A stretch of 64,000 bases of DNA from an uncultured Succinivibrionaceae bacterium (GTDB lineage: Bacteria; Pseudomonadota; Gammaproteobacteria; Enterobacterales; Succinivibrionaceae), in contig CASEBB010000003.1 of assembly GCA_949286015.1 (NCBI GenBank), forward strand, positions 1 through 64,000, in the 5' to 3' direction. Both the position numbers and the translations under genes were made by a program. The notes under the pieces were generated by a model. That model made no database searches. It was not told where the DNA came from and saw nothing but the letters and a program-made list of their open reading frames with translations. This document shows, in pieces, positions 13,741-45,408 of the stretch. The first letter of the stretch is position 1. Each line of letters starts with the position of its first letter.

Positions 13741-14213
13741 ATCACCTCTCTGCTTTTAGGCTACGTCCCTGAGCGTACCGCATCTCTTCTCGTCTTTTCC
13801 TCTTCTTTCCCCTTTCCTCTTGTTCTCTTCACTTCTGCTCTGCCCTTATTGTCGCCACATCATTGCTGTGTCTGCTCAGCGCGCCACGTTGGTCGGTTAC
13901 AAATGCCAGTAAAGTGTGTTGCAGGCGCTCGCCCTCAGATGGCCCCGCAGAAGGTTCTACCCCAAGAGGATCAGGGCACGCAAAGACAACAGCTTCCTTA
14001 AGTGCCTATCCCTCAAAGACTGGCCTATAGCCACGCAGTGCTTCAGTTGGCCGCCTGTAGTCCTGACCTTGAGTATCCCAAAAAGCAAATCTCAAAGGAG
14101 GTAACTGCCTACAATCAGGTGTTTTACCCTGAGAGTAGGCGTTGCTGAGGCGCTACTCTCGAGATAAGATGCTGTCTGGCGCTTTTAGGTTACCTACTCC
14201 TGACCGCTACAGC
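13741..14213. other. Gap after tRNA-Gly
   Basis: No supported gene. Pyrimidine-rich DNA follows the tRNA, then copy 1 of the 130-bp family A element. Confidence 0.5.
14069..14197 (+). mobile_element. MITE-like family A element, copy 1, with 8-bp target duplication
   Basis: 129 bp, from TTGAGTATCCC to AGGTTACCTAC. It is flanked on both sides by TCCTGACC (14061-14068 and 14198-14205), a perfect 8-bp duplication. The ends form an imperfect inverted repeat (GTGAGTATCC-type against GTAGGTAACC). An internal hairpin GAGAGTAG/CTACTCTC is intact. The 3' hairpin is damaged in this copy (ATGCTGTCTGGCGC). Confidence 0.9.
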
Positions 14214-14489
14214 TTATCTCTTGCGGTCTCTTAGTTTCCGTGGCTGGTGCTGCTGCGGCTGCGCAGCAGGCTTAGGATTAAGCTCAGGCTCAAGCGATAT
14301 AGTCCCCTCCTCTCCTGTAATGAAGTTCGCTGCAAGCGTGGTCTCCTGCAAATAGCCCGCAAATGCATAGCAAAGCGACAATACAGGCAAATAGCTGTAA
14401 GGGTCTATTACCAGCTGCGAAGCAGCATCAACGAACACCACAACAGTGTAAGGAGGCATTACAGCGCTTTGCGGTGCAGGTTCAGTCAT
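14214..14489 (-). CDS. Unknown small protein downstream of a secreted Asp/His-rich protein
   Basis: A 91-residue frame with a proper ribosome binding site (AGGAG, 9 nt before the ATG at 14489). It starts 45 nt after the stop of the secreted-protein gene on the same strand, so the two probably form one transcript. The middle is hydrophobic and aromatic (VIDPYSYLPVLSLCYAFAGYL) and the C-terminus is basic and Pro/Gln-rich (PQQHQPRKLRDRKR). No signal peptide is obvious and no known domain is recognised. Existence is supported by the binding site and the gene arrangement only. Confidence 0.5.
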   Translation of the reverse strand: MTEPAPQSAVMPPYTVVVFVDAASQLVIDPYSYLPVLSLCYAFAGYLQETTLAANFITGEEGTISLEPELNPKPAAQPQQHQPRKLRDRKR

Positions 14490-14534
14490 CTATCTTTGCT
14501 CCTGTAGGCATTTGCAGCGCATCACGCGCACCAG

Positions 14535-15029
14535 CTAGAAAGAGCCCGAGCGCGGCATGGTATGCTTGTACTTTACCCAATCCTCGGCATCATGGCCATC
14601 ATCATCATGATCATGGCCAGAGTCAGCACTACCCTCGTCATCATCATAGCCATGGCGGTCATGATCACCATAACCATCGCTATCACGGCCAGAGCCGTCA
14701 TCTCCGTAGGGTTCAAGCTGCGACCATGGCCACTGCTGCCCCGCAGAGCCGTCACCATAATCATGCTCGTCGCCCTGCCACGGGATAGTAAGATCGTCCT
14801 CGCCCCAGTTATCATTCCAAGGAATGGTGATATCGTCCTGCCCTTGTTGCGCGAACCACGGATCACTGCTCCATGGATAATCCCCACCATTATCGCTCCA
14901 CGTCTGAGCTGTAGCCACGTTTAGACAAGTGGCACCTGATACGAATCCCAGCGGCAGCACTAAGCTCAAGACGCACTTGCGTGCGCATAGACGTGAAAAC
15001 ACGCAGAGACGGGACAACAGCGGCAGCAT
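14535..15029 (-). CDS. Secreted Asp/His/Trp-rich low-complexity protein
   Basis: A 164-residue product. Residues 1-42 look like a signal peptide: basic start, hydrophobic core CVLSLVLPLGFVSGA, and a possible cleavage after ATA in NVATAQ. The mature part is very acidic and rich in Asp, Gly, Trp and His. DDITIPW and DDLTIPW repeat near residues 65 and 78, and a late run contains HDHDDDGHD. Such composition suggests binding of divalent metals or calcium outside the inner membrane, but this is inference. GGAGG lies 8 nt before the ATG at 15029 (a GTG one codon earlier is also possible). The gene appears to be first in a two-gene unit with the 91-residue frame. No homologue is recognised. Confidence 0.6.
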   Translation of the reverse strand: MLPLLSRLCVFSRLCARKCVLSLVLPLGFVSGATCLNVATAQTWSDNGGDYPWSSDPWFAQQGQDDITIPWNDNWGEDDLTIPWQGDEHDYGDGSAGQQWPWSQLEPYGDDGSGRDSDGYGDHDRHGYDDDEGSADSGHDHDDDGHDAEDWVKYKHTMPRSGSF

Positions 15030-15390
15030 CACTCTATCCTCCGTAATAACGCTTGCTACTCAAGTAGCTCACAGTGCAGACAAGCATACAACAATTACGA
15101 GGCGAGAAAACGGGTTCTAAGCAGAGTTTGGTGGATACCAAAGCAGCATCCCGCTGCGATCACTCATGGGGCTCATGTGATGGCGTTTGGCGGGACTCAC
15201 CTTGGAGTAAAGCACCCTTCTTCAAGGTCACTAACAATATGGGGTACCGCACAAGGCCTGCTTCCCTGTACAGGGATAACCTCATGGGTAGATCACGTTG
15301 CTTTTCCCTGCCGCTAAAACAACAAAGGCCGCCTACTGGCAGCCCCTGTCTTCATTCCCAAACAGCACTAATAAGCTGTGGCGTAGCTTA
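15030..15390. other. Gap between nagA end and the secreted-protein gene
   Basis: No gene. It holds the nagA terminator hairpin and the start region of the secreted-protein gene. A segment near 15118 (CAGAGTTTGGTGGATACCAA) is echoed near 41592 (CAGAGTTTGGTGGCTACAGC). Confidence 0.45.
15315..15344 (-). terminator. Terminator of nagA
   Basis: On the minus strand GGCTGCC pairs with GGCGGCC around AGTA, followed by TTTGTTGTTTT. It lies about 45 nt after the nagA stop. Confidence 0.75.
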
Positions 15391-16557
15391 CTAAATCAGC
15401 TCCGCCGTCGTCTTTAAGAAGCCGTTTTGGATCACGTAGCGGATCTTAAAGTCATCATTAAAGATAATTAAGTCCGCACGGTAGCCCGTGTCGATGTAAC
15501 CGCACTCCTTGTCTAAGCCCAGCACTCTTGCTGGTACCGTCGAGGCCGCCATTAAGGCCTCATCAAGTGGAATGCCGCAGGTCTTTACTAAGAACTTCAC
15601 ACCATCCATCATGCAGATGTTAGTGCCCACCAGCGAGCCCTTAGCGTCGATCAGACCACGCTTCGCGTCGTTAAACACTTCCGTGCCCGCAATGGTAAAG
15701 CTGGTCATCAGCTCAGGTGAGCCCGCCACCGCCTGCGAGTCGGAGACAATGTACATGCGGTCTTTTAAGAGCTGGTGAATGATACGCACAATGGCAGGGT
15801 GCACGTGACGGCCATCGGCAATCACACCGGCGCTTACCGTCTGCGCATTTAACACCGCACCAATGAGGCCAGGCTCGCGACCATTGACCATACGCATGGC
15901 GTTAAAGAGGTGGGTCACATTGGTCACACCCAGTTTAAACGCCTCAACCGCATCATTAAACGAGGCATTGGTGTGACCTAAAGACAGGCGCATGCCCATG
16001 CCTAAGAGGTCGACTAAGAACTTGCCTCGCACCACCTCCGGCGCAATCGTCATGTAGGCGATGTTGTCGATGTTCTCACGTAAATAAGTGATATCCGAGC
16101 TGCTAATACCACGGATATAGCCACTGCCATGGAAACCCTTACGCTCTGGATTAATGAACGGCCCCTCAAGGTGTAAGCCAGGGCACACACCAGGGTGCTT
16201 GTCCATAAACTTACGCACCGCTTGCAGTGCACGCGTCATACTCTCACGTGGGCCTGAGACCAAGGTCGGCACAAACGTTAAGGTGCCGTGCAGGGTCTGC
16301 CAGCGACGCATACGCTCAAGACCATCTAAACTCAGATCGGAGCTAAAGGTCACACCCGCACAGCCGTTAACCAAGAGGTCAACAAAGCCTGGGGCGACGT
16401 GCATGCCATTGAGATCAATCTCTTCAGAGGTGCCGTCCTCAAGCAGCACCGGATCCAAAGGGATGATGCGGTGATTCTGCACCGCTAAGCTATCAGCACC
16501 ATCAAGTACACCACGGGTCAGGTGTAACTTGGCATTGCGTAAAATAGTTGCTCCCAT
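15391..16557 (-). CDS. nagA: N-acetylglucosamine-6-phosphate deacetylase
   Basis: Removes the acetyl group from GlcNAc-6-phosphate, giving glucosamine-6-phosphate for catabolism or cell-wall recycling. 388 residues (382 in E. coli). Metal and active-site motifs are visible: APGFVDLLVNGCAG near residue 55, the glutamate in LHLEGPF, the histidines in LSLGHTNA and THLFNAM, and the catalytic aspartate in IVSDSQAVAG. There is no nagB, nagC or nagE beside it. Its product can feed GlmM and the peptidoglycan genes further along, since glmS lies 3 kb away on the same strand. Confidence 0.95.
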   Translation of the reverse strand: MGATILRNAKLHLTRGVLDGADSLAVQNHRIIPLDPVLLEDGTSEEIDLNGMHVAPGFVDLLVNGCAGVTFSSDLSLDGLERMRRWQTLHGTLTFVPTLVSGPRESMTRALQAVRKFMDKHPGVCPGLHLEGPFINPERKGFHGSGYIRGISSSDITYLRENIDNIAYMTIAPEVVRGKFLVDLLGMGMRLSLGHTNASFNDAVEAFKLGVTNVTHLFNAMRMVNGREPGLIGAVLNAQTVSAGVIADGRHVHPAIVRIIHQLLKDRMYIVSDSQAVAGSPELMTSFTIAGTEVFNDAKRGLIDAKGSLVGTNICMMDGVKFLVKTCGIPLDEALMAASTVPARVLGLDKECGYIDTGYRADLIIFNDDFKIRYVIQNGFLKTTAELI

Positions 16558-16884
16558 CTTGATGGTATCCGCTATTCAATCCAGCGCGCGAGCGCATCTC
16601 TCCTAAGCACGGGCAGCAGCCCTTTACTTAGCCCTTAGCGCTCTTTACCTACCTACTACCTGCTTTAGCCTATAGCGTGTAGTCAACAGCGCCACACCAG
16701 CGAAAGTCGCAACCTCAAGCGCAGCATCTTGACGGTACTAAAAAGCAGCAGGCGTAAGCTACGTAGCTGCTGCTTAGCCTCAGTACGCTTGTATTTGCTC
16801 TGAGGCTTGCTGTTCTGTAAGTTTAGTGGTCTGCGCCACAGGCTCTGCCTATACCACAGGCTTACTGCACCTGTGCCTGCGCCG
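16558..16884. other. Gap between srmB and nagA
   Basis: No gene. It contains a good minus-strand terminator hairpin for srmB at 16739-16775. Confidence 0.5.
16739..16775 (-). terminator. Terminator of srmB
   Basis: On the minus strand AAGCAGCAG pairs perfectly with CTGCTGCTT over a 15-nt loop and runs into TTTTAG. It lies 110 nt after the srmB stop. Confidence 0.7.
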
Positions 16885-18384
16885 CTACTCCTTTGCCGCG
16901 TCAGCTGCACTTGCTGACGGGTCCTTGCTGGAGTCCTGAGCAGAAGCGGCAAGAGCTTGCTCTTGTAAGCGTGCTGCTTTCTTCGCCCGCTTGGCCGCAA
17001 AATCAGGCTTGCCCTTGTTCTTCTTATCACGCAAGCGCACCTTTTTACGCGGCTTCTGCTCGTCTTTGTTGGCAGCTGCTTTCTTGGCAAAACCACCATG
17101 AGGATTGGCGCGGCTGCGCTTCTTCTCACTCGGGTGATTTGCCCCCACCTCCGCAAAGGAGGCACACAGACCTTTAATCGCACGGCGCTCAATTGGGCGC
17201 TGGGTATAGCGCTCAATGCGCTCTAAGGCCGTAAACTCAGTAGCCATCACTAAGCTTACGACCACACCCTTAGCGCCTGCGCGCGCAGTGCGACCCGCAC
17301 GGTGAACATAGATCTCGCTTTGCTGCGGCAAATCATAGTTGTAGACGTATTCCACGTCATCAATGTCTAAGCCGCGCGAGGCCACATCTGTGGCCAGCAT
17401 TAGATTCACCTCGCCGTCACGAAAGCGACGTAACGCCGCTGTACGCTCAAGCTGCGAACTTTCGCCCTTGAGGGTAGCAAAGCTCATACCTTGCCTTTTC
17501 AAAAAAGCAGAGAGGTGGGCTAAGTGATCCTTGGTGCGCACAAAAACAATGGCGCGCGCCTTAACCGTGGTGAGCAGATGCAGCAGGATCTTATCCTTTT
17601 GCAGATCTGAAGCAGCGTAGTAAGCACGCCCCTGTAAGAGCTCGGGCAGCTTCTCTACAGCCCCCGTGGCCACCGCCTCTGCCGCCGCTCCCTCTTCCCC
17701 GCTGGCTGCAGCAGCCGCGAGGTTAGAGCCATTGGCGCCTAAGATGATCTCCACGGGATTGTTGAGCACATTACGGGCAAAGTCCCGCACCCCGAAGCCC
17801 TCTAAGGTCGCCGAGAAGAGCATAGTCTGATAGCGCTCGGTGAGCTTACGAGTAATAGCGGCGATATCGTCTCTAAAGCCCATATCCAGCATGCGGTCGG
17901 CCTCATCAATGATGAGGATTTCCACGGTCTTAGGCTCAAGCCAGCCCTTTTGCAAAAACTCTAAGAGGCGGCCTGGGGTAGCGCAAATGATCGTAGCTAA
18001 GTTTTCACGCTGGCGGACGCGGTCGGCACCACCAATCACGGTAGCCACGCCAATAGGCTCGGTGATTTCTCCTTCGGCGGCGCTAATGGCCTCATCCTGC
18101 ACTTGCAACAGCTTTTGGGCAACGCTGCTGATTTGCTCTGCTAACTCGCGGGTTGGCTCCAGAATAATGCATTGCACGCCCTGACGTGGACGCTGGGCTA
18201 ATCGAGCAATAATAGGCAGTAAAAACGCAGCACTCTTACCGGTACCGGTAGGGGCACCACCTAAGACATCACGACCCTCTAAAGCCGGAGGCAGCACCAG
18301 CTTCTGGATAGGAGTTGGCTCCTCCCACCCTAATTGCGCCACGGCATCTAAGAGAAAGCCTGGCAGAGCAAATTCGTCAAACAT
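16885..18384 (-). CDS. srmB: DEAD-box RNA helicase, SrmB-like
   Basis: An ATP-dependent RNA helicase; SrmB acts early in 50S ribosome assembly. 499 residues. All core motifs are present in order: Q motif PTPIQ, Walker A APTGTGKS, PTRELAEQ, the DEAD box in IIDEADRMLDMGF, SAT in LFSATLEGF, RGLDIDDV and HRAGRTARAG. The N-terminus (FDEFALPGFLLDAV) and the order RDVLGGAPTGTGKSAAFLLP are closest to SrmB among the E. coli paralogues. An Ala/Glu-rich insert separates the two RecA domains, and the C-terminus is a basic tail (KKVRLRDKKNKGK) likely to bind RNA. The start at 18384 has TTGGAG 7 nt upstream; the frame opens 62 codons earlier without support. Confidence 0.9.
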   Translation of the reverse strand: MFDEFALPGFLLDAVAQLGWEEPTPIQKLVLPPALEGRDVLGGAPTGTGKSAAFLLPIIARLAQRPRQGVQCIILEPTRELAEQISSVAQKLLQVQDEAISAAEGEITEPIGVATVIGGADRVRQRENLATIICATPGRLLEFLQKGWLEPKTVEILIIDEADRMLDMGFRDDIAAITRKLTERYQTMLFSATLEGFGVRDFARNVLNNPVEIILGANGSNLAAAAASGEEGAAAEAVATGAVEKLPELLQGRAYYAASDLQKDKILLHLLTTVKARAIVFVRTKDHLAHLSAFLKRQGMSFATLKGESSQLERTAALRRFRDGEVNLMLATDVASRGLDIDDVEYVYNYDLPQQSEIYVHRAGRTARAGAKGVVVSLVMATEFTALERIERYTQRPIERRAIKGLCASFAEVGANHPSEKKRSRANPHGGFAKKAAANKDEQKPRKKVRLRDKKNKGKPDFAAKRAKKAARLQEQALAASAQDSSKDPSASAADAAKE

Positions 18385-18709
18385 ACAGTTCTCCAAGAGT
18401 GTGGCGGGGTTACAGCAGCAGATCTTCAAAGAGCAAAGAACAGCACTGCAGAGCACAGCACCACTGCGCAGCTCTAATGTTAGGGCAGCCTCCCCTGAGG
18501 TAGCTTTCCCCTGAGGATAAGCCCTGCCCAAAGCTGCCTGCTCTCGCCATAAGGCAGGAGCACGCACCATGTGGCAGGCGGGTGGCAGGCGTCAGCTGGT
18601 AGCAGCCGTTATTGCTACCACTGTAGGACGTGGCCTGCACTCGCTCTGCCGTGGCTTTGCCTGCGGCGCGGCGGCACAAAAGTACGGTGCTAAAGCTAAA
18701 GGAAGCCTA
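18385..18709. other. Gap between sdhE and srmB
   Basis: No gene seen in about 325 bp. Two close CCCCTGAGG(T/A) words lie near 18490 and 18510. Confidence 0.45.
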
Positions 18710-18979
18710 TTACACGCCCTCACGGCCTGCACGGGTGGCGTGGCAGGCAATAATGGTCTCTACCATTTGCTTACGCTGTGGGGTATTTGGCTCGGCGGTG
18801 TGATGCAGCCAGCGAAACAGCTCTAAATCAGTGGCGTCGAGTAAGTCCATATAGGCAGCAACGGTAGCTGCATCCATTTTTGGTAAGTCGTGCTCGACAA
18901 AAGGTAAGAGCATGAGATCAAGCTCACGCATACCACGGCGGGATTGCCACTTAATACGGCCCCAATTTACTTCGCTCAT
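18710..18979 (-). CDS. sdhE: FAD assembly factor SdhE (YgfY/CptB family)
   Basis: Helps attach FAD covalently to the flavoprotein subunit of succinate dehydrogenase and fumarate reductase. An 89-residue protein (88 in E. coli) with the family's conserved RGM motif (SRRGMRELDLMLLPF, near residue 16) that binds the flavoprotein. The ATG at 18979 is chosen because GGAGG lies 6 nt upstream and the N-terminus MSEVNWGRIKWQ fits the family. No sdh or frd genes are in the window; in a succinate-producing anaerobe its client would more likely be FrdA (inference). Confidence 0.93.
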   Translation of the reverse strand: MSEVNWGRIKWQSRRGMRELDLMLLPFVEHDLPKMDAATVAAYMDLLDATDLELFRWLHHTAEPNTPQRKQMVETIIACHATRAGREGV

Positions 18980-19767
18980 TGCAAACCTCCACAAAAAGGA
19001 CGCCTAATGATACCGCATCGCGGCAGTGATGTGGCTTTAAGAGCGGTCAGTAAGGGGCGCCCAGCGTGGCAATTGTGAGGTTGTTGAGGGTGGTGAGGGA
19101 GTTGTGTGAGTGGAGGTAGTCTCGTGACATGAGAGCGGGACGCTGCTATGGCAAGCGCTCCCCACAGGCGGTAGCTCACCTGCGCCTCATAGGGATCACC
19201 GCGCTTCACAGCACCATTAGCCTCAGCACCGCGTGATAGCACTTTACGGGTGCTTGGGGCTGCACTTTCTACCAAAAGTGCCACCCCCTCTTTTAGGCTT
19301 ATGCGGCAGTAGCGTCAGCAGTAGCGTCAGAACAGGCGTTTCTCCCAGTTTAGCCACACCTGCTATTAAGGTGTAGACGAGGGTACAGACACCGTCTCTA
19401 TGAGGGTTAGCACTTAAGGCAATAACTCCGCAGAAGACACTCTGGCCATAAGTTGCCGCCTGCCCCGCCACTGAAGAGACAGGCGCCTCTTTGCTGACGC
19501 CATTGCCTGTAACCAGTGGAGCAACAGGAGCAGCCCCGCTTCCTCTGTGAGCACCCGCTCTCCCCACCGTTGCTCCAAGTGGGCACCGCAAAAGCGCTTG
19601 GCAGCGCCTGCTCTTGATAGTAACGCCGCCAACACTACTCTCAGGGTAAAACACCTGCTTGCAGGCAATTACCTCCGTTGTGATTTGCTTTTTTGGGATA
19701 CTCGCGCTCACGGCTCTGGCGTCCGCGCTTACCCCGAGAGGTACTGCACCCCGCCTGCTTCTTAGCG
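18980..19767. other. Long gap between glmS and sdhE
   Basis: About 790 bp. No supported gene: the open frames run through repeat DNA. It contains a decayed copy of the family A element at 19579-19705. Confidence 0.5.
19579..19705 (-). mobile_element. MITE-like family A element, decayed copy
   Basis: Read on the minus strand it runs from GCGAGTATCCC to GGTGCCCAC, 127 bp. It retains recognisable blocks of the family (AAAGCAAATC, GGAGGTAA, CAGGTGTTTTACCCTGAG, AGCGCTTTT). Both internal hairpins and the flanking duplication are lost; the flanks share only GCTC. It seems an older insertion than the other four. Confidence 0.7.
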
Positions 19768-23106: not shown

Positions 23107-23733
23107 AGAGCAACCTCCAATAGGTTAAGGTCAGGGTAGCAAGCCCCACACAAAATAGTACCTAATGGTACCTTTTGCCCTGCTACTAAGCAATGCTGCT
23201 TTTGCAGCAGCTTACTGCGCACCGGCTGTAACCACTGCTGTGCTCTGCTCAGGTGCATTTTAGTCCCCTTAAACGAGCCAGCCACCCCACCACCTACCGC
23301 GCACGGACTAAAGCTACCTCTAAATAGCTCTCCGCTTCGCGCACCACCAGCAATTACCTCAATTACGCTCCAAAGCTCTCTCGTGGTGGTTCCCGCTAAG
23401 ACGTGCTCATGGTGGTCTGCCCTTAGTGCCGCGCTCTTGGTACCCCTCCTTTGGCCATTAGACAAGAGTGCTCTCATCAGTGATGAATGCGCAACTGAGA
23501 GCAGGCAACATCACCAACCTCGAGATAAAAGGTGCCGATAAGCTTGAGCTTATCTTCAGCCGTCACTAACACCATACAAGGGCCACTACCACCCCGTGGC
23601 GTAATGGTGCTTTGCTCTTCCCAGAAACACCAACGGCGCCCGTAGGCGCCGTATCGTGAGGGGTGTTGCGTTGCGGCTAAGCCGCCGCAGAATGCTGGAA
23701 GCTGGAAGCCGCGTCGCCGCGCCCTAAAAGCAG
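23107..23733. other. Gap between an unknown gene and thyA
   Basis: No supported gene. It contains a GGCGCC-CGTA-GGCGCC hairpin near 23640 inside a longer inverted AACACC/GGGTGTT pair, and CTCGAGATAAAAGGTGCC near 23519, a piece of the hairpin/CTCGAG module described in the findings. Confidence 0.5.
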
Positions 23734-24708: not shown

Positions 24709-25157
24709 AGCAGACTCCTGTGTAGTTTGCCATGATGCTGGTGGGAAAAGGAATGTGAGGCGCGGCAGCGCAGTGCTGTTGCCGCTGGTGGTAGGTATGA
24801 CGTGAGTATCCCCAAAAAGCAAATCTCAAAGGAGCTAACTGCCTACATTCAGGTGTTTTACCTGATAAGAGGCGTTTGCTGAGGCGCTACTCTCGAGATA
24901 AGGCGCCGTCAGGCGCTTTTAGGTTACCTACGTATGACTGAGGACGCCAGAGGACAGCTGCCCCGCTAAAGGGTAGCTGCCGCCTTTACTAGTGGGAGAT
25001 TCGCGCCGCAATTTTAGCTAAAAGGCCACTCTCTCTTGTGATAAAAGTGCTTGTGTCTGGGGTTCTACTGTCCCCAGTAAACTAGGAGCGCTATCTGAGC
25101 CGCGCCGCGCTTGTGGCGATGAGGTGCGGTTCTACCGCACTGCGATGCACTTGTGGG
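24709..25157. other. Gap between ptsP and the unknown gene
   Basis: No gene. It is largely occupied by family A element copy 2. A GTGCGG/CCGCAC hairpin without T-tract lies near 25125-25140, downstream of ptsP. Confidence 0.5.
24802..24931 (+). mobile_element. MITE-like family A element, copy 2, with 7-bp target duplication
   Basis: 130 bp, from GTGAGTATCCCC to GGTTACCTAC, flanked by GTATGAC on both sides (24795-24801 and 24932-24938). The 3' hairpin GCGCC-GTCA-GGCGC followed by TTTT is intact. The larger internal hairpin is partly broken (GATAAGAG against CTACTCTC). Confidence 0.9.
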
Positions 25158-28262: not shown

Positions 28263-29736
28263 AACCCTCCCTATAGCCATGCTAAAGCAAGTAGCATTGG
28301 CCAAAAGCATGTGGTGGCTTTTATCATAGCGCAATACGTCGGCAGCAAAAGGGGTAATTGCTGCTGACATTGCTGCCATAAGCCAAGGCGGTAATCTTAC
28401 GCAAGGATACACAGCTGCAACTTAGCGGCGGTGAGAGGCGGAGTTTTTTCTCATTGGCTCTGGCTGTCTCTTACGAGGGGTGCTACAGGCTGCACTGAGG
28501 ATAAAAAGCTGCAGGTGAAAGCATGACTTTATCATGGTGCCCTTGACCCTTGGGGTAAGGCATCGCAACGCTGCAATGGTGCTCGCGCCTCAGCACATCA
28601 CCATGCCCTTACTCTACTTTTCCCTGCCTCACAGCCACCATGAGCATACCCTAAAGGGCATCACCGCAACCACGATACGCAGAAGCTGTCATCTGCCATT
28701 CACGCCCCCTCAGTGTAACGGTTCTAATGGCGGTATTAGCGGGAGTGAGTGATGGCTATCCTTTGCCCCTTTGGAGTAAGGCGTCGCAGACGCCGTAATG
28801 GTGCTGTGCCACAGAACCTACCCTGCACTTATTCGTGATTATCCCCAAAAGCAAATCTCAAAGGAGGTAACTGCCTACAATCAGGTGTTTTACCCTGAGA
28901 ATAGGCCTTTGCTGAGGCGCTCCTCTCGAGATAAGGCGCCGTCAGGCGCTTTTAGGTTACCTTCCTTAATCTCTTTTCCCAGCATCACAGCCACCATGTG
29001 CCTACCCTAAAGCCATACCAGCAACCACGGTACGCAGAAGCGGTAGCACAACACTACCCACCCTGCAACACCTTTCTTTACAGCCCCTCCACGCCCTCTC
29101 CTTCACCCCTTACACTCACCACAAAAAGCGGCCACAGCCGCCTGCATAGCCCGCACCGCTTTACCCTGCCGCAGCTCACACTTTACGCAGCTCATGTCAG
29201 CCACTTCTATCACCATTTCCCCTCCCCCAACCCTTCCCGTATCAAAGCCTAACTGGCTCCAGCGTCACTGCCATAAGTCTATACGCATCGCCCAAGCGTT
29301 TGCTGCTTTTCATACCCATTTGCAAGCTTTCCCTTATTTAAGCCGCGCAGACGCTAATCTCGTCTAAAAAGGCAGCACGTTATCGGTCATATTGCGCGCA
29401 ACGCGAGCTATTGACGTAAAAGGGCTTATATATCAGCTTGAGAAGAGATAGTCATACCTCAAAACGCCACCTGACGTCACTTTTACGGGGGTTTTTGCCC
29501 AAAGTCAGGGTGTAGTGTGTTGACAAGACCAAAAAGTCTTGAGCGCAGGTCAGTCTGCGTTGCTTCCTCCTTACACGCCCGTCTGCCTACTGGCTGTGGT
29601 TACAGGGTTACACAGTCCGATGGGCTGTAAGGCAAGGCAACGCTGCTGACTTTGCGATCTGTGCTTTTTAGTTGGTGCTTACGCCCGCGCCGGTTGTAAG
29701 CCCAGTCACCATCTTCCTTGATAACAGGAGCTTTCT
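28263..29736. other. Long gap upstream of rppH and of the 515-residue gene
   Basis: About 1.47 kb between divergent genes. No supported gene. It holds family A copy 3, and a roughly 40-bp motif present twice, near 28547 and 28770, ending GTAATGGTGCT or CAATGGTGCT after GTAAGGC(A/G)TCGCA. AT-rich DNA near 29400-29440 may hold a promoter. Confidence 0.5.
28835..28964 (+). mobile_element. MITE-like family A element, copy 3
   Basis: 130 bp, from GTGATTATCCCC to GGTTACCTTC. The flanks are CTTATTC and CTTAATC (28828-28834 and 28965-28971), a 7-bp duplication with one mismatch. The 3' hairpin GCGCC-GTCA-GGCGC plus TTTT is intact; the larger hairpin is broken (GAGAATAG against CTCCTCTC). Confidence 0.85.
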
Positions 29737-34499: not shown

Positions 34500-34532
34500 G
34501 ACGCGAGCCTCTGGCTCTAGCTACGTACCCCT

Positions 34533-35277: not shown

Positions 35278-35290
35278 GCAGCCATTCAGT

Positions 35291-35367
<77 letters not shown>

Positions 35368-35374
35368 AGCACTA

Positions 35375-35397: not shown

Positions 35398-35460
35398 TCC
35401 TTGGGCTCTGGATGCTGTGGCTGGCATCGCAGACGCTGACTGAATAATGCAGCCGTCAGT

Positions 35461-35537
<77 letters not shown>

Positions 35538-35547
35538 ATACTAAGAG

Positions 35548-36588: not shown

Positions 36589-36651
36589 ACCGATCCTTTT
36601 GTCTGTTGCATTTAGATCACGTGGGTTCTCTTACCACCCGCGTCTAAAACG

Positions 36652-36683: not shown

Positions 36684-36744
36684 CTTGGTAGGCTCAAGAC
36701 TAGTCGTGAGCCGCTTATCTAAATTCGGTCTGTTTACCCTGTGG

Positions 36745-37095: not shown

Positions 37096-37139
37096 TTCTT
37101 TACCTACCCTAAAAGTAATCTGTACTTCCTCAAACGCTG

Positions 37140-37892: not shown

Positions 37893-37997
37893 CTTGCTTT
37901 CCTCTTTAGATGCCTCTTACCTGTAAGGCAAAACCTTACAAGCACTACTGCCGCAGGGAACTTCAGCTCAACCTGTGGCGCATCTTCTAGGAAGGGT

Positions 37998-38528
37998 TTA
38001 GTAGTCTTCGCCCCACTCCACCCAAATCTTGTGCGCAGCTAAATCAACACGCGTCACAATTGGGCCTTTAACGTAGGGTATGAGCCTCTGCTGTGGTACA
38101 CCCTGCGTTTGGTCAGAGGGAGATACTACCATATAGGGAGCAGCTCCTTGATCCACAACCCTCGACACCACGCCGAGGTTAACACCGTTAAGACCGATGA
38201 CCGTGCAACCTTCGAGGTCGACTAAATAAAGTTCATCGTCTGCAGGTGCGGGCAAGCTTGAGCGCTTGATCCCGATGTCCATGCCAGTCAGAAGAGCAGC
38301 CTCTTCCTTGACATTGGCCGCATCGAGCTTCACGATGAAGCCGTCGTTATGCGGTTTCCAAGCTTCTACCTGAACCTCACGCCAATCTTCCCCACGCCGA
38401 CGAATGAACCATGGCGAGTAGTCAAAAAGGTTTGCAGGTTGCTCGGTAAAGGACTGAACCTTAAGGTAGCCCTTGAGGCCATAAGTAGAACCTAATCTAC
38501 CCATGGGACGTGGAGTATCATCAACCAT
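37998..38528 (-). CDS. rimM: 16S rRNA processing protein RimM
   Basis: A maturation factor for the head of the 30S subunit that binds S19. 176 residues, two beta-barrel domains. The N-terminal GRLGSTYGLKGYLKVQSFTE is the typical RimM opening, and the PRC-barrel part contains DELYLVDLEGCTVIG. The final IPYVKGPIVTRVDLAAHKIWVEW matches the family end (LIPFV...VDLA...I.V.W). It begins 32 nt after rpsP. The site before the ATG at 38528 is poor; an ATG eight codons in is an alternative. Confidence 0.95.
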   Translation of the reverse strand: MVDDTPRPMGRLGSTYGLKGYLKVQSFTEQPANLFDYSPWFIRRRGEDWREVQVEAWKPHNDGFIVKLDAANVKEEAALLTGMDIGIKRSSLPAPADDELYLVDLEGCTVIGLNGVNLGVVSRVVDQGAAPYMVVSPSDQTQGVPQQRLIPYVKGPIVTRVDLAAHKIWVEWGEDY

Positions 38529-38560
38529 AAGCTAAACTAGTTAGCGTGTAGCCGTGATAA

Positions 38561-38941
38561 TTAAGCCTGAGCGGCTTCAGCAGCACCCTCGGCTGCGCCC
38601 TCAGCAGCAGCGGCGGCAGCGGCAGCTTCGGCCTTAGCCTTACGAGCAGCAACAGCCTTCTCGTACTTGGCGGCCTTGTAAGCGGCAACAGCCTCAGCAC
38701 CCATCTCCTGATCCTTGATCAGACGCTCAACACGCTCAGATGGCTGGGCACCGACGCTCTTCCAGTAGTTAACGCGCTCTAAGTTTAAGTTTAAGCGTAC
38801 TTCCTTACCCTTAGCGATTGGGTTATAGAAGCCGACTTGCTCGATGAAGCGACCAGTAGCGGCAAAGCGAGAGTCTGCAACCACTACGTGATAAAAAGGA
38901 CGCTTCTTAGCGCCAGCGCGACGTAAACGAATGACTACCAT
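38561..38941 (-). CDS. rpsP: 30S ribosomal protein S16 with Ala/Glu-rich tail
   Basis: Ribosomal protein needed for 30S assembly. The first ~80 residues are canonical ([44 protein letters not shown]). The total is 126 residues against 82 in E. coli; the extra ~44 form an Ala/Glu/Lys tail ending [13 protein letters not shown]. First gene of its operon, with a candidate promoter about 115 bp upstream. Other proteobacteria also carry S16 tails, so the tail is notable but not unique. Confidence 0.97.
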
Positions 38942-39055
38942 TTCGCAAATTACCCATTAATTTGTTTTTTCTCACTGAGAGGTGCGTCGGCAGCTAGTAG
39001 CTAGTGCCTTAAGACGAGGCAAACGCGCATCAGTGAAGTAATACACAGACCGACA

Positions 39056-39083
39056 ATTTTACAGCCTTTCTGGGAAAAAGCAA
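39056..39083 (-). promoter_or_regulatory. Candidate promoter of the rpsP operon
   Basis: On the minus strand TTGCTT, a 16-bp spacer and TAAAAT. The implied leader to rpsP is about 105 nt. Confidence 0.5.
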
Positions 39084-39437
39084 GAACCAGCGCGCATTTT
39101 TCGGCACTACCCCCTACCCATGCGGGGCATACTGTGTTATTGTTTCTAAGATTTGTGAGCTGCGCTGGAGGCTATTGGTTATGACTGCACCAACTGCCAT
39201 GGCAAAGGGTACAAACCTTAGCGCTAACAGCTTCCCTTGATGCCCGCCTTCCTGTGCGTCTTAGTCCCTTGCAGCAGCGGCTGCGACGGCCTTTCCTCTT
39301 TGTCCCTTTGTGTAGACGCTCCGGCCTACCAACTCACCTACCTACCTACCTCTTCCCTCTTCTCTTCTTCCTCTCTCTCTCTGCTATCCTGCTGCGAGTG
39401 TTTTTCCCTCGTTCCTAAGAGTATTTTCTACTAGGTT

Positions 39438-39575
39438 CTTGGCTTAGAATCGGCCTTTGCGGTGGGTTTAAGCCCCTTGAGGCAGAAAGCTGATATGGAA
39501 CATCAAGCATCGCGACCGCGACGTTTCTTTGCGGTAGGGTAATGGCCAGTAGCTTGGCTCTCACATGGAGAAACG
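39438..39575 (+). repeat. Dispersed ~140-bp repeat (family D), copy 1
   Basis: Shares blocks in the same order with 58452-58590: AATCGGCCTTT, TTAAGCCCCTTGA, GCAGAAA, CTGATA, CAAGC, CGCGACGT, TAATGGC and AGCT. Similarity by eye is about three quarters. No terminal inverted repeat or flanking duplication was found. Confidence 0.65.
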
Positions 39576-39751
39576 CCCTAAGTAGACAGCGTGGAGCCAC
39601 TGCACTTACCAGCGTCCCTGCAGTGCGCCTACTCTGGCCACCGCTGGCTACCGCCATTACTCTAAGTAGTGCTAAGGGCTGGCTGCGGAGCTGGCTTCCT
39701 CCACTCCACCACTCCACCCTATGCTGGTGCCTGCGCTTTCTCCCCGCCCAG

Positions 39752-39792
39752 AAACAAAAAGGCAGCACTACGGAGCAAACCGCAATGCCGCC
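39752..39792 (-). terminator. Terminator of ffh
   Basis: On the minus strand GGCGGCATT pairs with AGTGCTGCC (two G-T pairs) and runs into TTTTTGTTT; 54 nt after the stop. Confidence 0.75.
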
Positions 39793-39845
39793 TCTTTGAG
39801 CTTTAAGCTTTGCGCTCTGAGCTTGGCGCTAAGCAGCGCTCCGCC

Positions 39846-41249
39846 TTAGCGGCGCATCTTGCCGCCAAAGCCGCCTAAACCGCCAAAACCACCCAAGCCA
39901 GACATCATGCCTTGCATGCCGCGCATCATGCCCATTAAGGCCTTTGGGCCCTTATTGCCCATGCGCTTCATCATCTTCTGCATCTGATCCACTTGCATCA
40001 GCAGACGATTGACATCTTGCACCTGTACACCAGCACCGGCGGCAATGCGCTTCTTACGCGAGGCCTTAATAATGGATGGGTCACGACGCTCCTTGATCGT
40101 CATGGAGAGAATAATAGCCTCCATGTGAGCAAACTGCTTGTCGTTAATCTTATCGCCCGCCTTGGCCATGATGGCGCTACCACCTGGCAGCTTCTCCAGC
40201 ATCGAACTGATGCCGCCCATCTTGCGCATTTCTTTGATCTGATCGAGGAAGTCCTCTAAAGTCAGAGTCTTGCCCTTGGTAATCTTCTTGGCGATCTTGT
40301 CAGCCTTGCAGGCATCGGTCTTACGCTGCACTTCCTCAATTAAGGAGAGCACATCGCCCATGCCTAAGATACGCGAGGCAATACGATCAGGGAAGAATGG
40401 CTCTAAGGCCACCACCTTTTCACCGGTACCAATAAACTTGATTGGCTTGCCAGTAATCTCACGCACCGATAAGGCCGCACCACCACGGGCATCACCATCA
40501 GCTTTGGTTAAGATCACGCCGGTTAATGGCAGCGCGTCCGCAAAGGCCTTTGCGGTGTTCGCCGCGTCTTGACCAGTCATGGAGTCAACCACAAACAGGG
40601 TCTCGGTAGGCTCGCAGATCTTATGCAGATCCTGCACTTCGCGCATCATGTCCTCATCGACCGCCAGACGACCAGCGGTATCGACGATCAGCACTTCGGT
40701 GTAGCGCTTCTTAGCCTCGGCCAGTGCGGCCTTAGCGATCTCTTGTGGCGTGCTGTTAGGGTCAGAAGGGAAGGCATCAATGCCAATTTCTTTGGCTAAG
40801 GTCTGTAACTGATCGATAGCCGCAGGACGGTAGGTATCGACCGACACCACGAGCACGCTCTTCTTTAAGCGCTCTTTGATGTACAGGGCCAGCTTGGCAG
40901 CGGAGGTGGTCTTACCAGCACCTTGTAAACCGGCAAGTAAGATCACTGCTGGTGGTTGGTGAGCGACATTGAGGGCGTCGTTCTTGGCGCCCATGGTCTC
41001 TACCAACTGGTCATAGACGATTTTGATGAACTCTTGGTCTGGGGTTAAGCTCTGACTAACCTCTTGACCTAAAGCTCTTTCCTTAACCTTGGCGGTAAAG
41101 CTCTTCACCACGCTTAAGGCGACGTCAGCCTCTAACAGGGCAGTACGCACCTCACGGAGGATGTCCTTAACGTTGTCCTCGGTAATGCGGCCCTTACCAG
41201 AGATCTTCTTAAAGGCTTGACTGAGTCTTTCGCTTAAATTATCAAACAT
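39846..41249 (-). CDS. ffh: Signal recognition particle protein Ffh (SRP54)
   Basis: The GTPase that binds signal sequences on ribosomes and delivers them to FtsY at the membrane. 467 residues (453 in E. coli). N domain (FDNLSERLSQAFKKISGKG), G domain with P-loop LAGLQGAGKTTSAAKLA, DTAGR and TKADGDARGG, then the methionine-rich M domain (MQKMMKRMGNKG, MMRGMQGMMSG) ending in a Gly/Phe-rich tail. The start at 41249 gives the family N-terminus; the frame opens 19 codons earlier and no strong ribosome binding site is seen. It precedes rpsP as in E. coli. Confidence 0.97.
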   Translation of the reverse strand: MFDNLSERLSQAFKKISGKGRITEDNVKDILREVRTALLEADVALSVVKSFTAKVKERALGQEVSQSLTPDQEFIKIVYDQLVETMGAKNDALNVAHQPPAVILLAGLQGAGKTTSAAKLALYIKERLKKSVLVVSVDTYRPAAIDQLQTLAKEIGIDAFPSDPNSTPQEIAKAALAEAKKRYTEVLIVDTAGRLAVDEDMMREVQDLHKICEPTETLFVVDSMTGQDAANTAKAFADALPLTGVILTKADGDARGGAALSVREITGKPIKFIGTGEKVVALEPFFPDRIASRILGMGDVLSLIEEVQRKTDACKADKIAKKITKGKTLTLEDFLDQIKEMRKMGGISSMLEKLPGGSAIMAKAGDKINDKQFAHMEAIILSMTIKERRDPSIIKASRKKRIAAGAGVQVQDVNRLLMQVDQMQKMMKRMGNKGPKALMGMMRGMQGMMSGLGGFGGLGGFGGKMRR

Positions 41250-41764
41250 CGCGCTATCTTGTTTGTCCAGTGCACTCGGCGGTGGTGCAGTGCAGTTACA
41301 CCTCAAGCCCCCTTATGAAAAGAGGATTAGCCCAAAAGAAGCGGTGGGCTGGGTGGTGACGAGCGTAGTGTGGGTGTGCCACGCTACCTACTCACATCAT
41401 CCTGCTGATTATAGCCTACAAACGCTATAACGCGCGGCTAAGAGGTGGTATAGCCCACGGTGGGGGCGTGACCACAAGTCCTGACCCTCTGTAGCTGGCT
41501 GTTTTGCTGTGAACTGACACGCAGCGAAGGTACCCTTAAGAACGCAGCGTGGATCTACCCTACCTCTCAAGGGTAAGGCGACAGCCTTAAAAAGGGCTCT
41601 ACTCAGAGTTTGGTGGCTACAGCAACGTAGCCTCACACCTTGAGGCAAGCGCATGAGCCGTGGTTGTGGCTTTTAATGTCAGCCACCTAAAATAAAAAAC
41701 CCAGCAAGGATTTGCTCCCGCTGGGTTTGTCAGCACCTGTGGTGCTATTCACCTGAGCCTTAGC
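41250..41764. other. Gap between motX and ffh
   Basis: No supported gene in about 515 bp. It includes the motX terminator and a CAGAGTTTGGTGG word also found near 15122. Confidence 0.45.
41692..41727 (-). terminator. Terminator of motX
   Basis: On the minus strand ACCCAGC pairs with GCTGGGT over a 14-nt loop and runs into TTTTTTATTT; about 40 nt after the stop. Confidence 0.88.
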
Positions 41765-42487
41765 TTAGTAGTCAGAGAAGTTGTCGCTCATAGCCCGCGC
41801 CACAATATTGGCAGGCATCATCTTCTTCATCTGCTCTTGTAAGTATTGGCTCTTGGCGCGCTCGTACTCACTAAAGTAAATCGTGTGGTACAGCCAGCTA
41901 AAGGCCTCCTCATAGTAAGCAGGAGCACCTAAGCCACGCACCAGCATGTCCGCCCACTGTAAGCGTGCGGTGTTAGAGCCGAGCGAAGCCGCTGCGCGCA
42001 TCAGCGAGATGGCACGGTGGCGGTCACGTGATACTAAAAAGCCACGCTCATAGAAATCAGAGAGCTTAATCATGGCAGGCGCATAGCCGTGGCTTACTGA
42101 CTTATTGAGATAGTCGAGGCCTAATTCCACGTCCTGCTTGACGCACACGCCATTAATGAGCATGTCACCCCAGACAAACTCAAAGGCAGGCATGCCCACG
42201 ATACGAGCACGGTCTTCGATATCAGGGGTAAACTGGCACTTATCGCGGTCGTGAATGACCTGCATATAAACGCCGGTTTCGACGTAAGTGTTGAGCTCGT
42301 CTACGGTGTAGACGTTAACTGACGTATTGTCGTCCTTGTACTTTTCCAAGGTGCTTTCAATAGCCTTACGGGCTACTAAAGCCTGCGCATCTGTCACGCG
42401 ATCGTAAGTCGACGAGACCGAAGCAAAAGCACAGCTGGACACACCCACTAACAGTGCGAGTGTAGCTCCCATCACTTGCTTGAGCAT
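41765..42487 (-). CDS. motX: MotX-like sodium-type flagellar motor protein (Sel1 repeats)
   Basis: A 240-residue exported protein. Residues 1-23 are a signal peptide (LKQVMGATLALLVGVSSCAFA); VSSC could also be read as a weak lipobox. The body carries Sel1-type repeats and follows MotX of Vibrio as I remember it: DKCQFTPDIEDRAR, PAFEFVWGDMLINGVCV, QDVELGLDYL, HRAISLMRAAASLGS and the final MPANIVARA. MotX forms the periplasmic T-ring that holds PomA/PomB stators of polar flagella. The gene stands alone here, as motX often does. GAGG lies 5 nt before the ATG. If not MotX, it is still a periplasmic Sel1-repeat protein. Confidence 0.82.
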   Translation of the reverse strand: MLKQVMGATLALLVGVSSCAFASVSSTYDRVTDAQALVARKAIESTLEKYKDDNTSVNVYTVDELNTYVETGVYMQVIHDRDKCQFTPDIEDRARIVGMPAFEFVWGDMLINGVCVKQDVELGLDYLNKSVSHGYAPAMIKLSDFYERGFLVSRDRHRAISLMRAAASLGSNTARLQWADMLVRGLGAPAYYEEAFSWLYHTIYFSEYERAKSQYLQEQMKKMMPANIVARAMSDNFSDY

Positions 42488-43285
42488 GATAACCTCAATT
42501 CTCCGCTCCGCCCTGTAGGGCTGATCGCGTTTTATTCTGGCGCTTGATGCTACTAGACTGGCATCGGGCGCGGTTGGTGTAAGGCTCTGGGACAGCCGTC
42601 CCTCGGGATGCAGAGAGCTTTCTGCGGCGGGGTAAGGCCCGCATATCTTAGAGGTTCCTACCTCACGTTACCCTAGAGCTAAAGCTATGCAACGACAATA
42701 CCACCGCCCCCTAGGGGCTCTCGCCACGCTCAAGCCTCTTACGGTGCTAGTGTGGCTCTAAGCTGCATCCTACGCTGCTCTTGGCTGTATCGCCCTTATG
42801 GATTGCGTCTGCGGCAGGCTACACACTGTGCTTGTACTGTGCTGGTAACCACCTGCTCACCTTGTGGTCAGCTCAGCGACCACGCTGGGAGCAACGTGTG
42901 AAAGTTTTGCTCTGCAGAGGTTAGCCCCTAGTGTCACCTCCCCTGAGGACGTACCACCGAGGCCCCTGTTACCCTGTTGTGGTAAGCGGCTCATGGTTGC
43001 ATGACTCTCTGGGTAAGGCCTCTAATACCATACTCCACAGAGCCTCAACCCCGCGCCCCTAAAGGCAGCACCTGAGGCACAAGCAGCCGCCCTCTCTTAG
43101 TGACCACAGAGATCAGTAAGCTTGAGTCTCCCTACCCAGAGAGGGTATTCCTATAGCAGCGGTGTGGGGGCACCTACCGTCATTGCAGGCGGCCTCTAAG
43201 AATATTCACCATAAATGGCCTCCCCCGCAAAGCCCTGATACTATCTGCTCTGAGCACCACTTAGAGCTACACCCAATCGCCACCA

Positions 43286-43318
43286 TAAAAAAGGCCAGAA
43301 CATGTTACTGCTCTGGCC
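43286..43318 (-). terminator. Intrinsic terminator, owner unclear
   Basis: On the minus strand GGCCAGA pairs with TCTGGCC over 12 nt, followed by TTTTTTAT. It is a good terminator but lies 340 nt past mdh, so it may end an unannotated transcript (small RNA or tiny gene) between 43320 and 43500. Confidence 0.75.
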
Positions 43319-43507
43319 CTTGTAATCATTCAGCAAAAAATCCATTTGGTTTGCCTACTTACGTAGAACAGAGCCGTGGTTGGCTTCAAACCAAGCACCT
43401 GCTCCCAAATAGACAAAACTACTGTGTGCATTAGCATTGCCTCTCAAAGCAAGGATTAAGCCGCTACTTAACATGCTTAACCGCAGCTTTTTGGGCACTA
43501 CTAATAG

Positions 43508-43539
43508 AAAAGGCCAAAAACTTGCGCTCTTGGCCTTTT
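43508..43539 (-). terminator. Terminator-like hairpin downstream of mdh
   Basis: AAAAGGCCAA and TTGGCCTTTT form a perfect 10-bp stem over 12 nt; the terminal Ts are part of the stem, so it could work in both directions. It lies 120 nt after the mdh stop. Confidence 0.65.
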
Positions 43540-43659
43540 CCTCTGATACAACCTGCCATGGTAACCACTTAAGGCGCATCGCACCTGTAGTCACCGGCAG
43601 TTACTGTCAGCTTTTGCCGCATACTCTCAGCAAAAGCTACAGCTCAATCCTGTAAGGGA

Positions 43660-44622
43660 TTACTTGTTCTCAGCAATCCACTTCTGGCCGAACTCAACAC
43701 CCTTCTTGATGTTGCCAGCTAAGACGGACTGTAAGTCGTCTAAGCACTTCTGCTCGTAAGCGGAGATGGTGCCGAAGTCGATCACACGCTTCCAGCCCTC
43801 GGTACCAAACTCAATGCGCTGCGCAAAGAATTGGCCGTACTTCGAGCCACCCTCGACATAGCCGTACTCGGTCACGCCTGGCTCGCCTAATAAGCCACGG
43901 ACAACCTTTAACGCAAAACGAGCACCGGCAGCAGCCATCGATAAGGTAGCGGAACCAGCACCAGCCTTAGCCTCAACCACCTCAGTACCAGCGTTCTGAA
44001 TGCGCTTGGTTAAAGCGTCGATACGCTCCTCAGAGATCACCTCAGAGCCAACAACCTTCGACAGTAAAGGTAAGATGGTGGTGCCAGAGTGACCGCCGAT
44101 CACTGGAACCTGAGTGTAAGCCTTGGACAGACCTAACTCCTCGCCTAAGAAGGTCTCAGAACGCAGCACGTCTAAGGCGGAGATACCAAATAAGCGGTGA
44201 GCGTCGTAGACACCCTCAGCCTTTAAGACCTCAGCAGCGATAGGAACAGTGGAGTTCACTGGGTTGGTGATGATGCAGATGCAAGCCTTAGGGCAGGTCT
44301 TAGCGCAGTTCTTCACTAAGTTAGCGATAATGCCAGCATTGACGTTGAAGAGGTCGTCACGGGTCATGCCTGGCTTACGAGCCACACCAGCTGGAATTAC
44401 GACCACATCGGCGCCTTCTAAGGCCTTGGTTAAGCCGTCATCACCAGTGTAACCATCGACGCAAACGTCGGTTGGGATGTGGCTTAAATCCTTAGCAACA
44501 CCAGGGGTGAATGGGGCAACGTCATACAGGGAAAGGCAGGAACCTGCTGGTAACTGAGTCTTTAAGATTAAAGATAATGGCTGGCCAATACCACCTGCTG
44601 CACCTAAAACGGCAACCTTCAT
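43660..44622 (-). CDS. mdh: Malate dehydrogenase
   Basis: NAD-dependent interconversion of malate and oxaloacetate; in succinate-forming anaerobes it runs reductively from oxaloacetate. 320 residues (312 in E. coli). The Rossmann start [16 protein letters not shown], the substrate arginines in [24 protein letters not shown] and the catalytic histidine in [13 protein letters not shown] are all visible. GAGGAA lies 9 nt before the ATG. Monocistronic. Codon use is strongly biased, which fits high expression. Confidence 0.98.
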
Positions 44623-45255
44623 AAGATCTAATTCCTCATGCTGTTACACCCATCAGCCGCAAGGCGGTGATGGCACCTGAGCTTTATCAGCGCAGCTTCA
44701 TGCTGCGTTGCAGCCATTATCTTAACGCATTTTGTGCAAGGCACAAACAACGCACTGAGTTAGTTCTGCGCGTTAAGGCTATGACCTGAGCTTAAGCTCT
44801 TGAAACTTTGGGGATTATAGCACAGCTCTTTTGCCCGCCTTTTGAGGTCTATCACAAAGCCAGCGGCATTGGGACAGCTTTAGCGGTGCTTAGCGCGCAC
44901 GTGCAGGCGGCGGGCATGGCGGCATAGGTAATACGGTGCTCTAAGCGGGAGCTCTGCAAGAAAGGCAGTTCTTAGCCGCGCTACACCTCAAAGATACGCC
45001 CTGACCAGCATGCGCTCACTTCAGAGGTGTCACCAGCAGCAGCGGCTGCGACTGCGGTTGCTGCAGCTGCTCTCAGGAGTACTGCTCTCCGCAGTAATGT
45101 CCATAGCCCACCTGTGGAGCTATCAACCCCCGCCATCCTAACGCTCTCAATGATACGGCGCTTAGCGCTGTCACATCCCTTGTTTTGGCAGCCCTGAGCA
45201 CTACCTGCAATCAGAGATAGTCACTGCCAAGAGAGCACGATCCCAGAGGTGTTCC

Positions 45256-45385
45256 GTAGGTAACCTAAAAGCGCCTAACGGCGCCTTATCTCGAGATTAG
45301 AGCCTCAGCAAACGCCTAATCTCAGGGCAAAACCCTTGATTGTAGGCAGTTACCTACTTTGAGATGTGCCTTTTGGGATAATCAC
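45256..45385 (-). mobile_element. MITE-like family A element, copy 4, with perfect 8-bp target duplication
   Basis: 130 bp in inverse orientation. It is flanked by GGTGTTCC on both sides (45248-45255 and 45386-45393). On the minus strand it runs from GTGATTATCCC to GGTTACCTAC. Its larger hairpin is GAGATTAG/CTAATCTC, while copy 1 has GAGAGTAG/CTACTCTC: both arms changed and pairing was kept. The 3' hairpin GCGCC/GGCGC plus TTTT is intact. Confidence 0.92.
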
Positions 45386-45408
45386 GGTGTTCCTTACTCC
45401 TGCCCAAA

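What the first reader, a model, noticed from the sequence alone, without database searches (positions are those of the whole stretch)
14061..45393. A 130-bp non-autonomous mobile element in four copies with target duplications
Copies at 14069-14197, 24802-24931, 28835-28964 and 45256-45385 have almost constant length (129-130 bp) and well-defined ends. Each is bordered by its own short direct repeat: TCCTGACC (8 of 8), GTATGAC (7 of 7), CTTATTC/CTTAATC (6 of 7) and GGTGTTCC (8 of 8). The borders differ between copies, so they come from the target. A decayed fifth copy is at 19579-19705. The ends are imperfect inverted repeats (GTGAGTATCC-type and GTAGGTAACC). Four to five copies in 64 kb suggests many genome-wide. 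The parent transposase is not in the window; 7-8 bp duplications fit several IS families, so no family is assigned.
Basis: seen in the sequence. Interest (0 to 1): 0.85.

Follow-up and report, generated by a model that had tools for sequence, protein, structure and literature searches.

The report
Many-copy 130-bp MITE in Anaerobiospirillum
A 130-base piece of DNA with no transposase gene of its own has been inserted again and again, mostly between genes, in a bacterium of the genus Anaerobiospirillum, and it is one of several kinds of short repeat that crowd this genome and its sister species but were not found in eight other species of the genus.

Summary
Four 129-130 bp copies and one decayed copy lie at the stated coordinates with the stated border words. 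In the window's own genome (4.47 Mb draft) a 24-base pattern from the element hits 174 times (control 0). Of 76 full copies read with flanks, 51 have a 7-8 bp border duplication with at most one mismatch, against 22 of 5700 mixed flank pairs. A sister species (Candidatus Anaerobiospirillum pullicola) has clean empty sites at 4 of 8 sites examined, 2 of them window copies; 2 sites are shared, 2 unresolved. So this is a MITE: a non-autonomous element inserted by a trans-acting transposase (inferred) with 7-8 bp staggered cuts. Insertions are nearly all between genes (2 of 69 in a long ORF; random 273 of 400). No autonomous partner was found; IS66 transposase was not found in this genome. The family was found in 2 of 10 congeners and 0 of 30 more distant relatives searched. 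The same two genomes carry about eight groups of 100-200 bp dispersed repeats (3.3% of a 446.5 kb sample, biased upward); three that were tested show the same two-species pattern. New member of a known kind, in an unusually crowded genome.

The parts
14069..14197 (+). MITE-A copy 1 (129 bp); site unresolved in the sister species, where only the left flank aligns
14061..14068 (.). left target duplication TCCTGACC of copy 1
14198..14205 (.). right target duplication TCCTGACC of copy 1
24802..24931 (+). MITE-A copy 2 (130 bp); empty site in sister species
24795..24801 (.). left target duplication GTATGAC of copy 2
24932..24938 (.). right target duplication GTATGAC of copy 2
28835..28964 (+). MITE-A copy 3 (130 bp); empty site in sister species (the border word itself has diverged there)
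28828..28834 (.). left target duplication CTTATTC of copy 3
28965..28971 (.). right target duplication CTTAATC of copy 3 (6 of 7)
45256..45385 (-). MITE-A copy 4 (130 bp); its site was not examined in the sister species
45248..45255 (.). left target duplication GGTGTTCC of copy 4
45386..45393 (.). right target duplication GGTGTTCC of copy 4
19579..19705 (-). decayed MITE-A copy 5; the same insertion is present in the sister species, where its copy is itself interrupted by another insertion

Best explanation
[quoted passage not shown] It is about 130 bp, too short to carry a transposase, and has imperfect terminal inverted repeats of about 18 bp (GTGAGTATCCCAAAAAGC at one end, GTAGGTAACCTAAAAGC at the other; three of the 30 aligned copies have more symmetrical ends, about GTAGGTATCCCAAAAAGC, and may be an older subfamily). 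A DDE-type transposase acting in trans would bind both ends, move the element and insert it at a 7-8 bp staggered cut, which repair turns into the border duplication. Shown here: many copies, precise ends, 7-8 bp duplications, empty sites in a sister species, nested insertions, and presence almost only between genes. Inferred: the transposase and its type. The family amplified in the lineage of two sister Anaerobiospirillum species, partly before they split and, unless precise loss is common, partly after. The closest copies compared are 97% identical, so no very recent burst is visible.
For: Copies and ends. Duplications: 51 of 76 against 22 of 5700 control pairs in this genome; 6 of 14 against 1 of 182 in the sister genome. 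Empty sites: joined flanks align continuously to the sister genome at window copies 2 and 3 and at L041:7749 and L041:18803. Shared older insertions: window copy 5 and L041:13791. No match in 38 of 40 genomes searched, 8 congeners among them. Intergenic: 2 of 69 in a predicted ORF of at least 150 aa against 273 of 400 random positions. Nesting: a copy of another repeat family (MITE-B) lies inside one MITE-A copy in contig C155. Age: maximum pairwise identity 0.969, median 0.867 over 90 copies.
Against: No element bearing a transposase between these ends was found, so the enzyme is inferred only. 25 of 76 full copies lack a duplication under the strict count, and 8 of 14 in the sister genome; imprecise borders or decay may explain this but were not resolved one by one. 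Two of 8 examined sites could not be resolved because only the left flank aligns in the sister genome.
Confidence: 0.95

Rival explanations
1. The mobilising enzyme is an IS66-type transposase, so MITE-A is a deletion derivative of an IS66 relative that has been lost from this genome.
For: IS66-like matches occur in 34 of 56 genomes of the bacterial family, the sister species among them. Four such elements read here have inverted ends beginning GTA and an exact 8-bp duplication (L147, L167; L176, L189). These came from searches that required a 7-8 bp duplication, and also GT ends; most of the 50 partly overlapping loci scanned gave no clear pair. MITE-A also begins GTA/GTG.
Against: No IS66 transposase match in this genome. 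None of the 16 IS66-like stretches compared has MITE-A ends. MITE-A shows many 7-bp duplications (10 exact at 7, 16 exact at 8), whereas IS66 is recalled to give 8 bp.
Confidence: 0.2
2. An immobile repeat kept for a function of its RNA (terminator, attenuator or small RNA), spread by recombination.
For: Five strands of four copies fold more stably than shuffles, z -2.4 to -3.7, and copies lie between genes.
Against: Border duplications and empty sites. In 30 aligned copies the covariation term is unfavourable (+0.64) and only 1 of 28 predicted pairs has a compensatory change. The fold partly follows from the inverted terminal ends.
Confidence: 0.03
3. A REP/REPIN-type repeat moved by a RAYT (IS200/IS605-like) enzyme; one end does start with GTAG, as GTAG-tagged REPs do.
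For: One terminus begins GTAG; GTAG-tagged palindromic REP repeats are known (PMC3733652, title and start of abstract seen in a search listing).
Against: REPs are 20-40 bp (same listing); MITE-A is 130 bp with 7-8 bp target duplications, which RAYT-type enzymes are not expected to make (recalled).
Confidence: 0.02

Closest known systems
Prokaryotic MITEs in general (ERIC, Correia, RUP, Chunjie, MITEAba12; review PMC10969869)
   Same: Short, non-autonomous, many copies, normally intergenic. The review gives Correia >120 and ERIC 30-711 copies and describes bunched elements inserting into one another in S. pneumoniae (section 3 read; passages).
   Different: Host lineage and, as far as recalled, sequence. 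No alignment to any named MITE was made here; the only Rfam matches at gathering scores in the window are three tRNAs, outside the copies.
IS66-family elements of the same bacterial family
   Same: Four that were read have ends beginning GTA and duplicate 8 bp.
   Different: They carry a transposase; their ends do not match MITE-A's.
MITE-B, a second repeat family of the same genome (model B; e.g. L041:5532-5661)
   Same: Similar size, border word CAACTTTA (8 bp by eye) and an empty site in the same sister genome.
   Different: Different, longer inverted ends (consensus GGCTCTACTCAGAGTTTGGTGGATA), so probably a different enzyme (inference).

Membership tests
MITE (non-autonomous DNA transposon) | short element without a transposase gene, in many copies | tested here: met
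   about 130 bp; 174 pattern hits in the genome, control 0; length 130 in 38 of 76 full copies, 110-144 overall
MITE (non-autonomous DNA transposon) | terminal inverted repeats | tested here: met
   imperfect, about 18 bp; more symmetrical in L223, L244 and L250
MITE (non-autonomous DNA transposon) | target site duplication of characteristic length | tested here: met
   7-8 bp, 51 of 76 with at most one mismatch against 22 of 5700
MITE (non-autonomous DNA transposon) | empty sites in relatives | tested here: met
   4 clean empty sites of 8 examined, 2 shared, 2 unresolved
MITE (non-autonomous DNA transposon) | ends shared with an autonomous element | tested here: inconclusive
   none found, but whole-genome end patterns allowed few mismatches; a diverged parent could be missed
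IS66 derivative | IS66 transposase available in the genome | tested here: not met
   no PF03050 match in the window's genome; one 1100-aa frame with IS66 matches in the sister genome
IS66 derivative | ends shared with an IS66 element of a relative | tested here: not met
   16 of 20 fetched stretches compared with the MITE-A ends, no match at 15 or more of 18 bases
REP/REPIN | 20-40 bp palindromes, no target duplication | tested here: not met
   130 bp with 7-8 bp duplications

The most novel reading that the evidence does not exclude
Two sister Anaerobiospirillum species carry a plant-like crowd of miniature elements: about eight groups of apparently unrelated 100-200 bp dispersed repeats, roughly 3% of the sequence sampled, amplified only in their common lineage and inserting into each other, with no recognisable autonomous partner left for MITE-A. 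This would suggest a lineage-wide loosening of control over transposition, or serial invasion by transposases that later disappeared.
Probability: 0.35. Interest if true: 0.6.

Novelty: new member of a known kind. Interest (0 to 1): 0.42.

Why it matters
A 2024 review says that nothing like the plant situation (dozens of MITE families, 8-10% of a genome) has been observed in prokaryotes (PMC10969869, section 3.2). Here one family is shown to have inserted repeatedly, and two further, apparently unrelated repeat families are found in the same two species and not in eight congeners, apart from one 26-base match. The sister species is 89-95% identical in the four longest matching stretches of the 16.5 kb compared, so insertion, decay and loss can be followed site by site.

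Tried and rejected
Parent transposase. (a) Score matrices of both ends over 640 kb of fetched sequence (loci overlap, not deduplicated): outside element copies no site reached half of the maximum score of 37. (b) Whole-genome patterns in 10 genus members for each end followed by non-element sequence. The other-end pattern gave 14 hits here and 21 in the sister genome against controls of 1 each. I looked at the surroundings of about half and judged the rest from the letters printed: most are element copies shifted by an indel. Nine lone hits were checked for a partner end; none had a 7-8 bp duplication. The pattern gave 2 hits, one a damaged copy; the pattern gave 11, of which nine were inspected and were element copies or lone sites; in one (L277) an element copy lies 1.3 kb away. 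One G000 place (C14, L253:4039-4265) has both end types 227 bp apart, but no duplication and no relative among the fetched loci; left as coincidence. (c) IS66 as parent: no match in this genome; relatives' IS66-like elements do not share the ends. (d) Viral contigs: no exact match to a 27-base core. Other transposase families were not searched for.

Structure: a consensus fold of 90 copies gave almost none; fold_alignment on 30 copies gave a fold without covariation support. An RNA function was rejected as the main explanation.

An automatic search for borders of the other repeat families found border words only for B/F5 and partly F4. For MITE-A it ranked a chance-like 2-base signal first and 7-bp words (at most one mismatch) at the right ends in only 23 of 60 copies, because indels shift alignment columns; so its negative results for F2, F3, F6, F7, F9, F13 and F14 are not evidence of immobility. 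Copies of B were counted in both orientations there, so its 31 is inflated.

Sampling bias: the 446.5 kb sample is most of the window's contig plus stretches of seven contigs that already had MITE-A matches, so densities from it are too high for MITE-A (25 pieces in 446.5 kb, against 174 pattern hits in 4.47 Mb).

Literature: searches for Anaerobiospirillum with 'transposable element' (2 papers) and with 'insertion sequence' (5 papers), Succinivibrionaceae/MITE terms (10 of 1,095 listed), MITE terms (20 of 30 and 12 of 18 listed) and 'Anaerobiospirillum pullicola' (1 paper). No listed title or abstract start describes these elements. Only listings were seen, except the outline, passages and section 3 of PMC10969869 and the outline with abstract of PMC2229807.

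Full report
What was checked. The window is positions 1-64000 of contig C3 of a 4.47 Mb draft genome in 241 contigs. Aligned with 10 bp of flank, similarity stops at the borders. The decayed fifth copy is real.

Which organism. A 27-base core of the element was found in 4 stretches of the named species collection, all from the MAG Candidatus Anaerobiospirillum pullicola; that collection may leave out the window's own genome. Three of the four contig lengths (9895, 16151, 17552) equal those of contigs of the genus-mate G002, so G002 is taken to be that species. The window's species is therefore another Anaerobiospirillum; its name and source were not established. A. pullicola appears in a paper on chicken gut metagenomes (PMC8035907, listing only).

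How many. Genome-wide BLAST scored 40 of 238 first-look candidates and reports 40 matches. A 24-base pattern (19 specified bases) with up to three mismatches gives 174 hits (100 forward, 74 reverse), reversed-pattern control 0. Of 40 genomes searched (this one and 39 relatives, nine of them in the genus), only this genome and G002 have matches.

Target duplications. From loci, contig stretches and 60 further stretches around pattern hits, 76 full, non-redundant copies with flanks were extracted from this genome, and 14 from G002. Flank identity rises clearly above control only for words of 7 and 8 bases; 10 copies have an exact 7-base word and 16 an exact 8-base word. With at most one mismatch, 51 of 76 copies have a 7-8 bp duplication; control 22 of 5700 mixed pairs. 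For G002, 6 of 14 against 1 of 182. The flanking words lean towards G at the first and C at the last base (each about 0.4-0.46), as a weakly palindromic target would give.

Empty and shared sites. G002 is 89-95% identical in the four longest matching stretches of the 16.5 kb compared. Eight sites were examined: window copies 1, 2, 3 and 5 and four copies in L041 (contig C36). With the element and one border word removed, the flanks align continuously to G002 at window copy 2, window copy 3, L041:7749 and L041:18803: four empty sites. The L041:7749 alignment has a 30-base insertion in G002 further to the right, and at window copy 3 the border word itself differs in G002. Window copy 5 and L041:13791 are present, decayed, at the same place in G002. 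At window copy 1 and L041:5232 only the left flank aligns. Window copy 4 was not examined. So some insertions predate the split and some are found in only one lineage.

Age and context. Over 90 copies the median pairwise identity is 0.867 and the maximum 0.969: no identical pairs, so no visible very recent burst. With the element excised, 2 of 69 insertion points fall inside a greedily predicted ORF of at least 150 aa, against 273 of 400 random positions (7 of the 76 had too little flank). This is crude gene calling but a large difference, and fits either target choice or removal of harmful insertions.

Structure. Five strands of four copies fold better than shuffles (z -2.4 to -3.7), but across 30 copies the covariation term is unfavourable and 1 of 28 pairs shows a compensatory change. 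There is no evidence for a conserved RNA fold.

Parent. The ends are GTGAGTATCCCAAAAAGC and, reading inwards from the other side, GTAGGTAACCTAAAAGC. Three of the 30 copies aligned (L223, L244, L250) have more symmetrical ends. No lone end was found in fetched sequence, and no element with another interior in whole-genome patterns over ten genus members. These patterns allowed few mismatches, and the pattern excluded ends that continue into GC as the element's own do, so a diverged parent is not excluded. IS66 was tested because its ends are recalled to begin GTA with 8-bp duplications: no IS66 match in this genome. In the family, 34 of 56 genomes have a match. Four IS66-like elements read here have ends beginning GTA with exact 8-bp duplications, found by searches that required such a duplication, but none of 16 stretches compared has MITE-A's ends. 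IS66 stays a lead; other transposase families were not searched for.

The wider picture. Self-comparison of a 446.5 kb sample gave many clusters of short repeats. Eleven family models, which fall into about eight groups because B, F5 and F13 share ends and F9 and F14 share their first bases, mark 111 pieces covering 3.3% of the sample, 15 of them in the window. The sample is biased (see Tried and rejected). F2 (159-position model) and MITE-B have 246 and 161 first-look candidates in this genome, 40 scored for each. Both have many matches in G002 (181 and 214 candidates, 40 scored) and none in the other eight congeners, apart from a 26-base, E=8e-4 match of MITE-B in one. MITE-B has an empty site in G002 with an 8-bp word, and one copy lies inside a MITE-A copy. 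Mobility of the other groups was not shown; some F4 copies show border words of about 8 bp by eye.

Verdict. MITE-A is a genuine MITE family that has been mobile in the past. It is a new member of a known kind; the crowding of several apparently unrelated miniature families in one bacterial lineage is the more interesting aspect and deserves its own study.

Noticed in passing
L041:5532-5661; L215 (G000:C155, inside a MITE-A copy): MITE-B: a second family with long inverted ends (consensus GGCTCTACTCAGAGTTTGGTGGATA), 8-bp border word, an empty site in G002, and a copy nested in MITE-A.
   Followed up: partly
window 59904-60056 (-), 23459-23561 (+): F2: a dispersed repeat of about 159 bp with inverted ends, 246 first-look candidates genome-wide (40 scored); of 10 genus members matches only in this genome and G002. 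Border duplication not resolved.
   Followed up: partly
window 39398-39578, 58424-58592: F4: a dispersed repeat of about 190 bp with GAGAGCGTTTTCCCC-type ends; by eye a similar insertion sits inside the G002 copy orthologous to window copy 5.
   Followed up: partly
window 4243-4371 (+) and 4353-4469 (-): Two F6 repeat matches in inverted orientation, overlapping by 19 bases; in L044 pieces of F6 flank a MITE-A copy at 8270-8398, as if the MITE had inserted into it.
   Followed up: no
window 24979-25084: F9 repeat just right of MITE-A copy 2; its consensus shares its first bases (CTAGTGG.AGATTCG) with F14, which has long near-perfect inverted ends (L042:9390-9544).
   Followed up: no
window 35286-35368 and 35456-35538: Two identical 83-bp repeats, each holding a tRNA-Met gene (CAT anticodon), starts 170 bp apart.
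   Followed up: no
L253:4039-4265 (G000:C14): A single 227-bp stretch bounded by sequences like both MITE-A ends in the right orientation, without target duplication or other copies among the fetched loci.
   Followed up: partly
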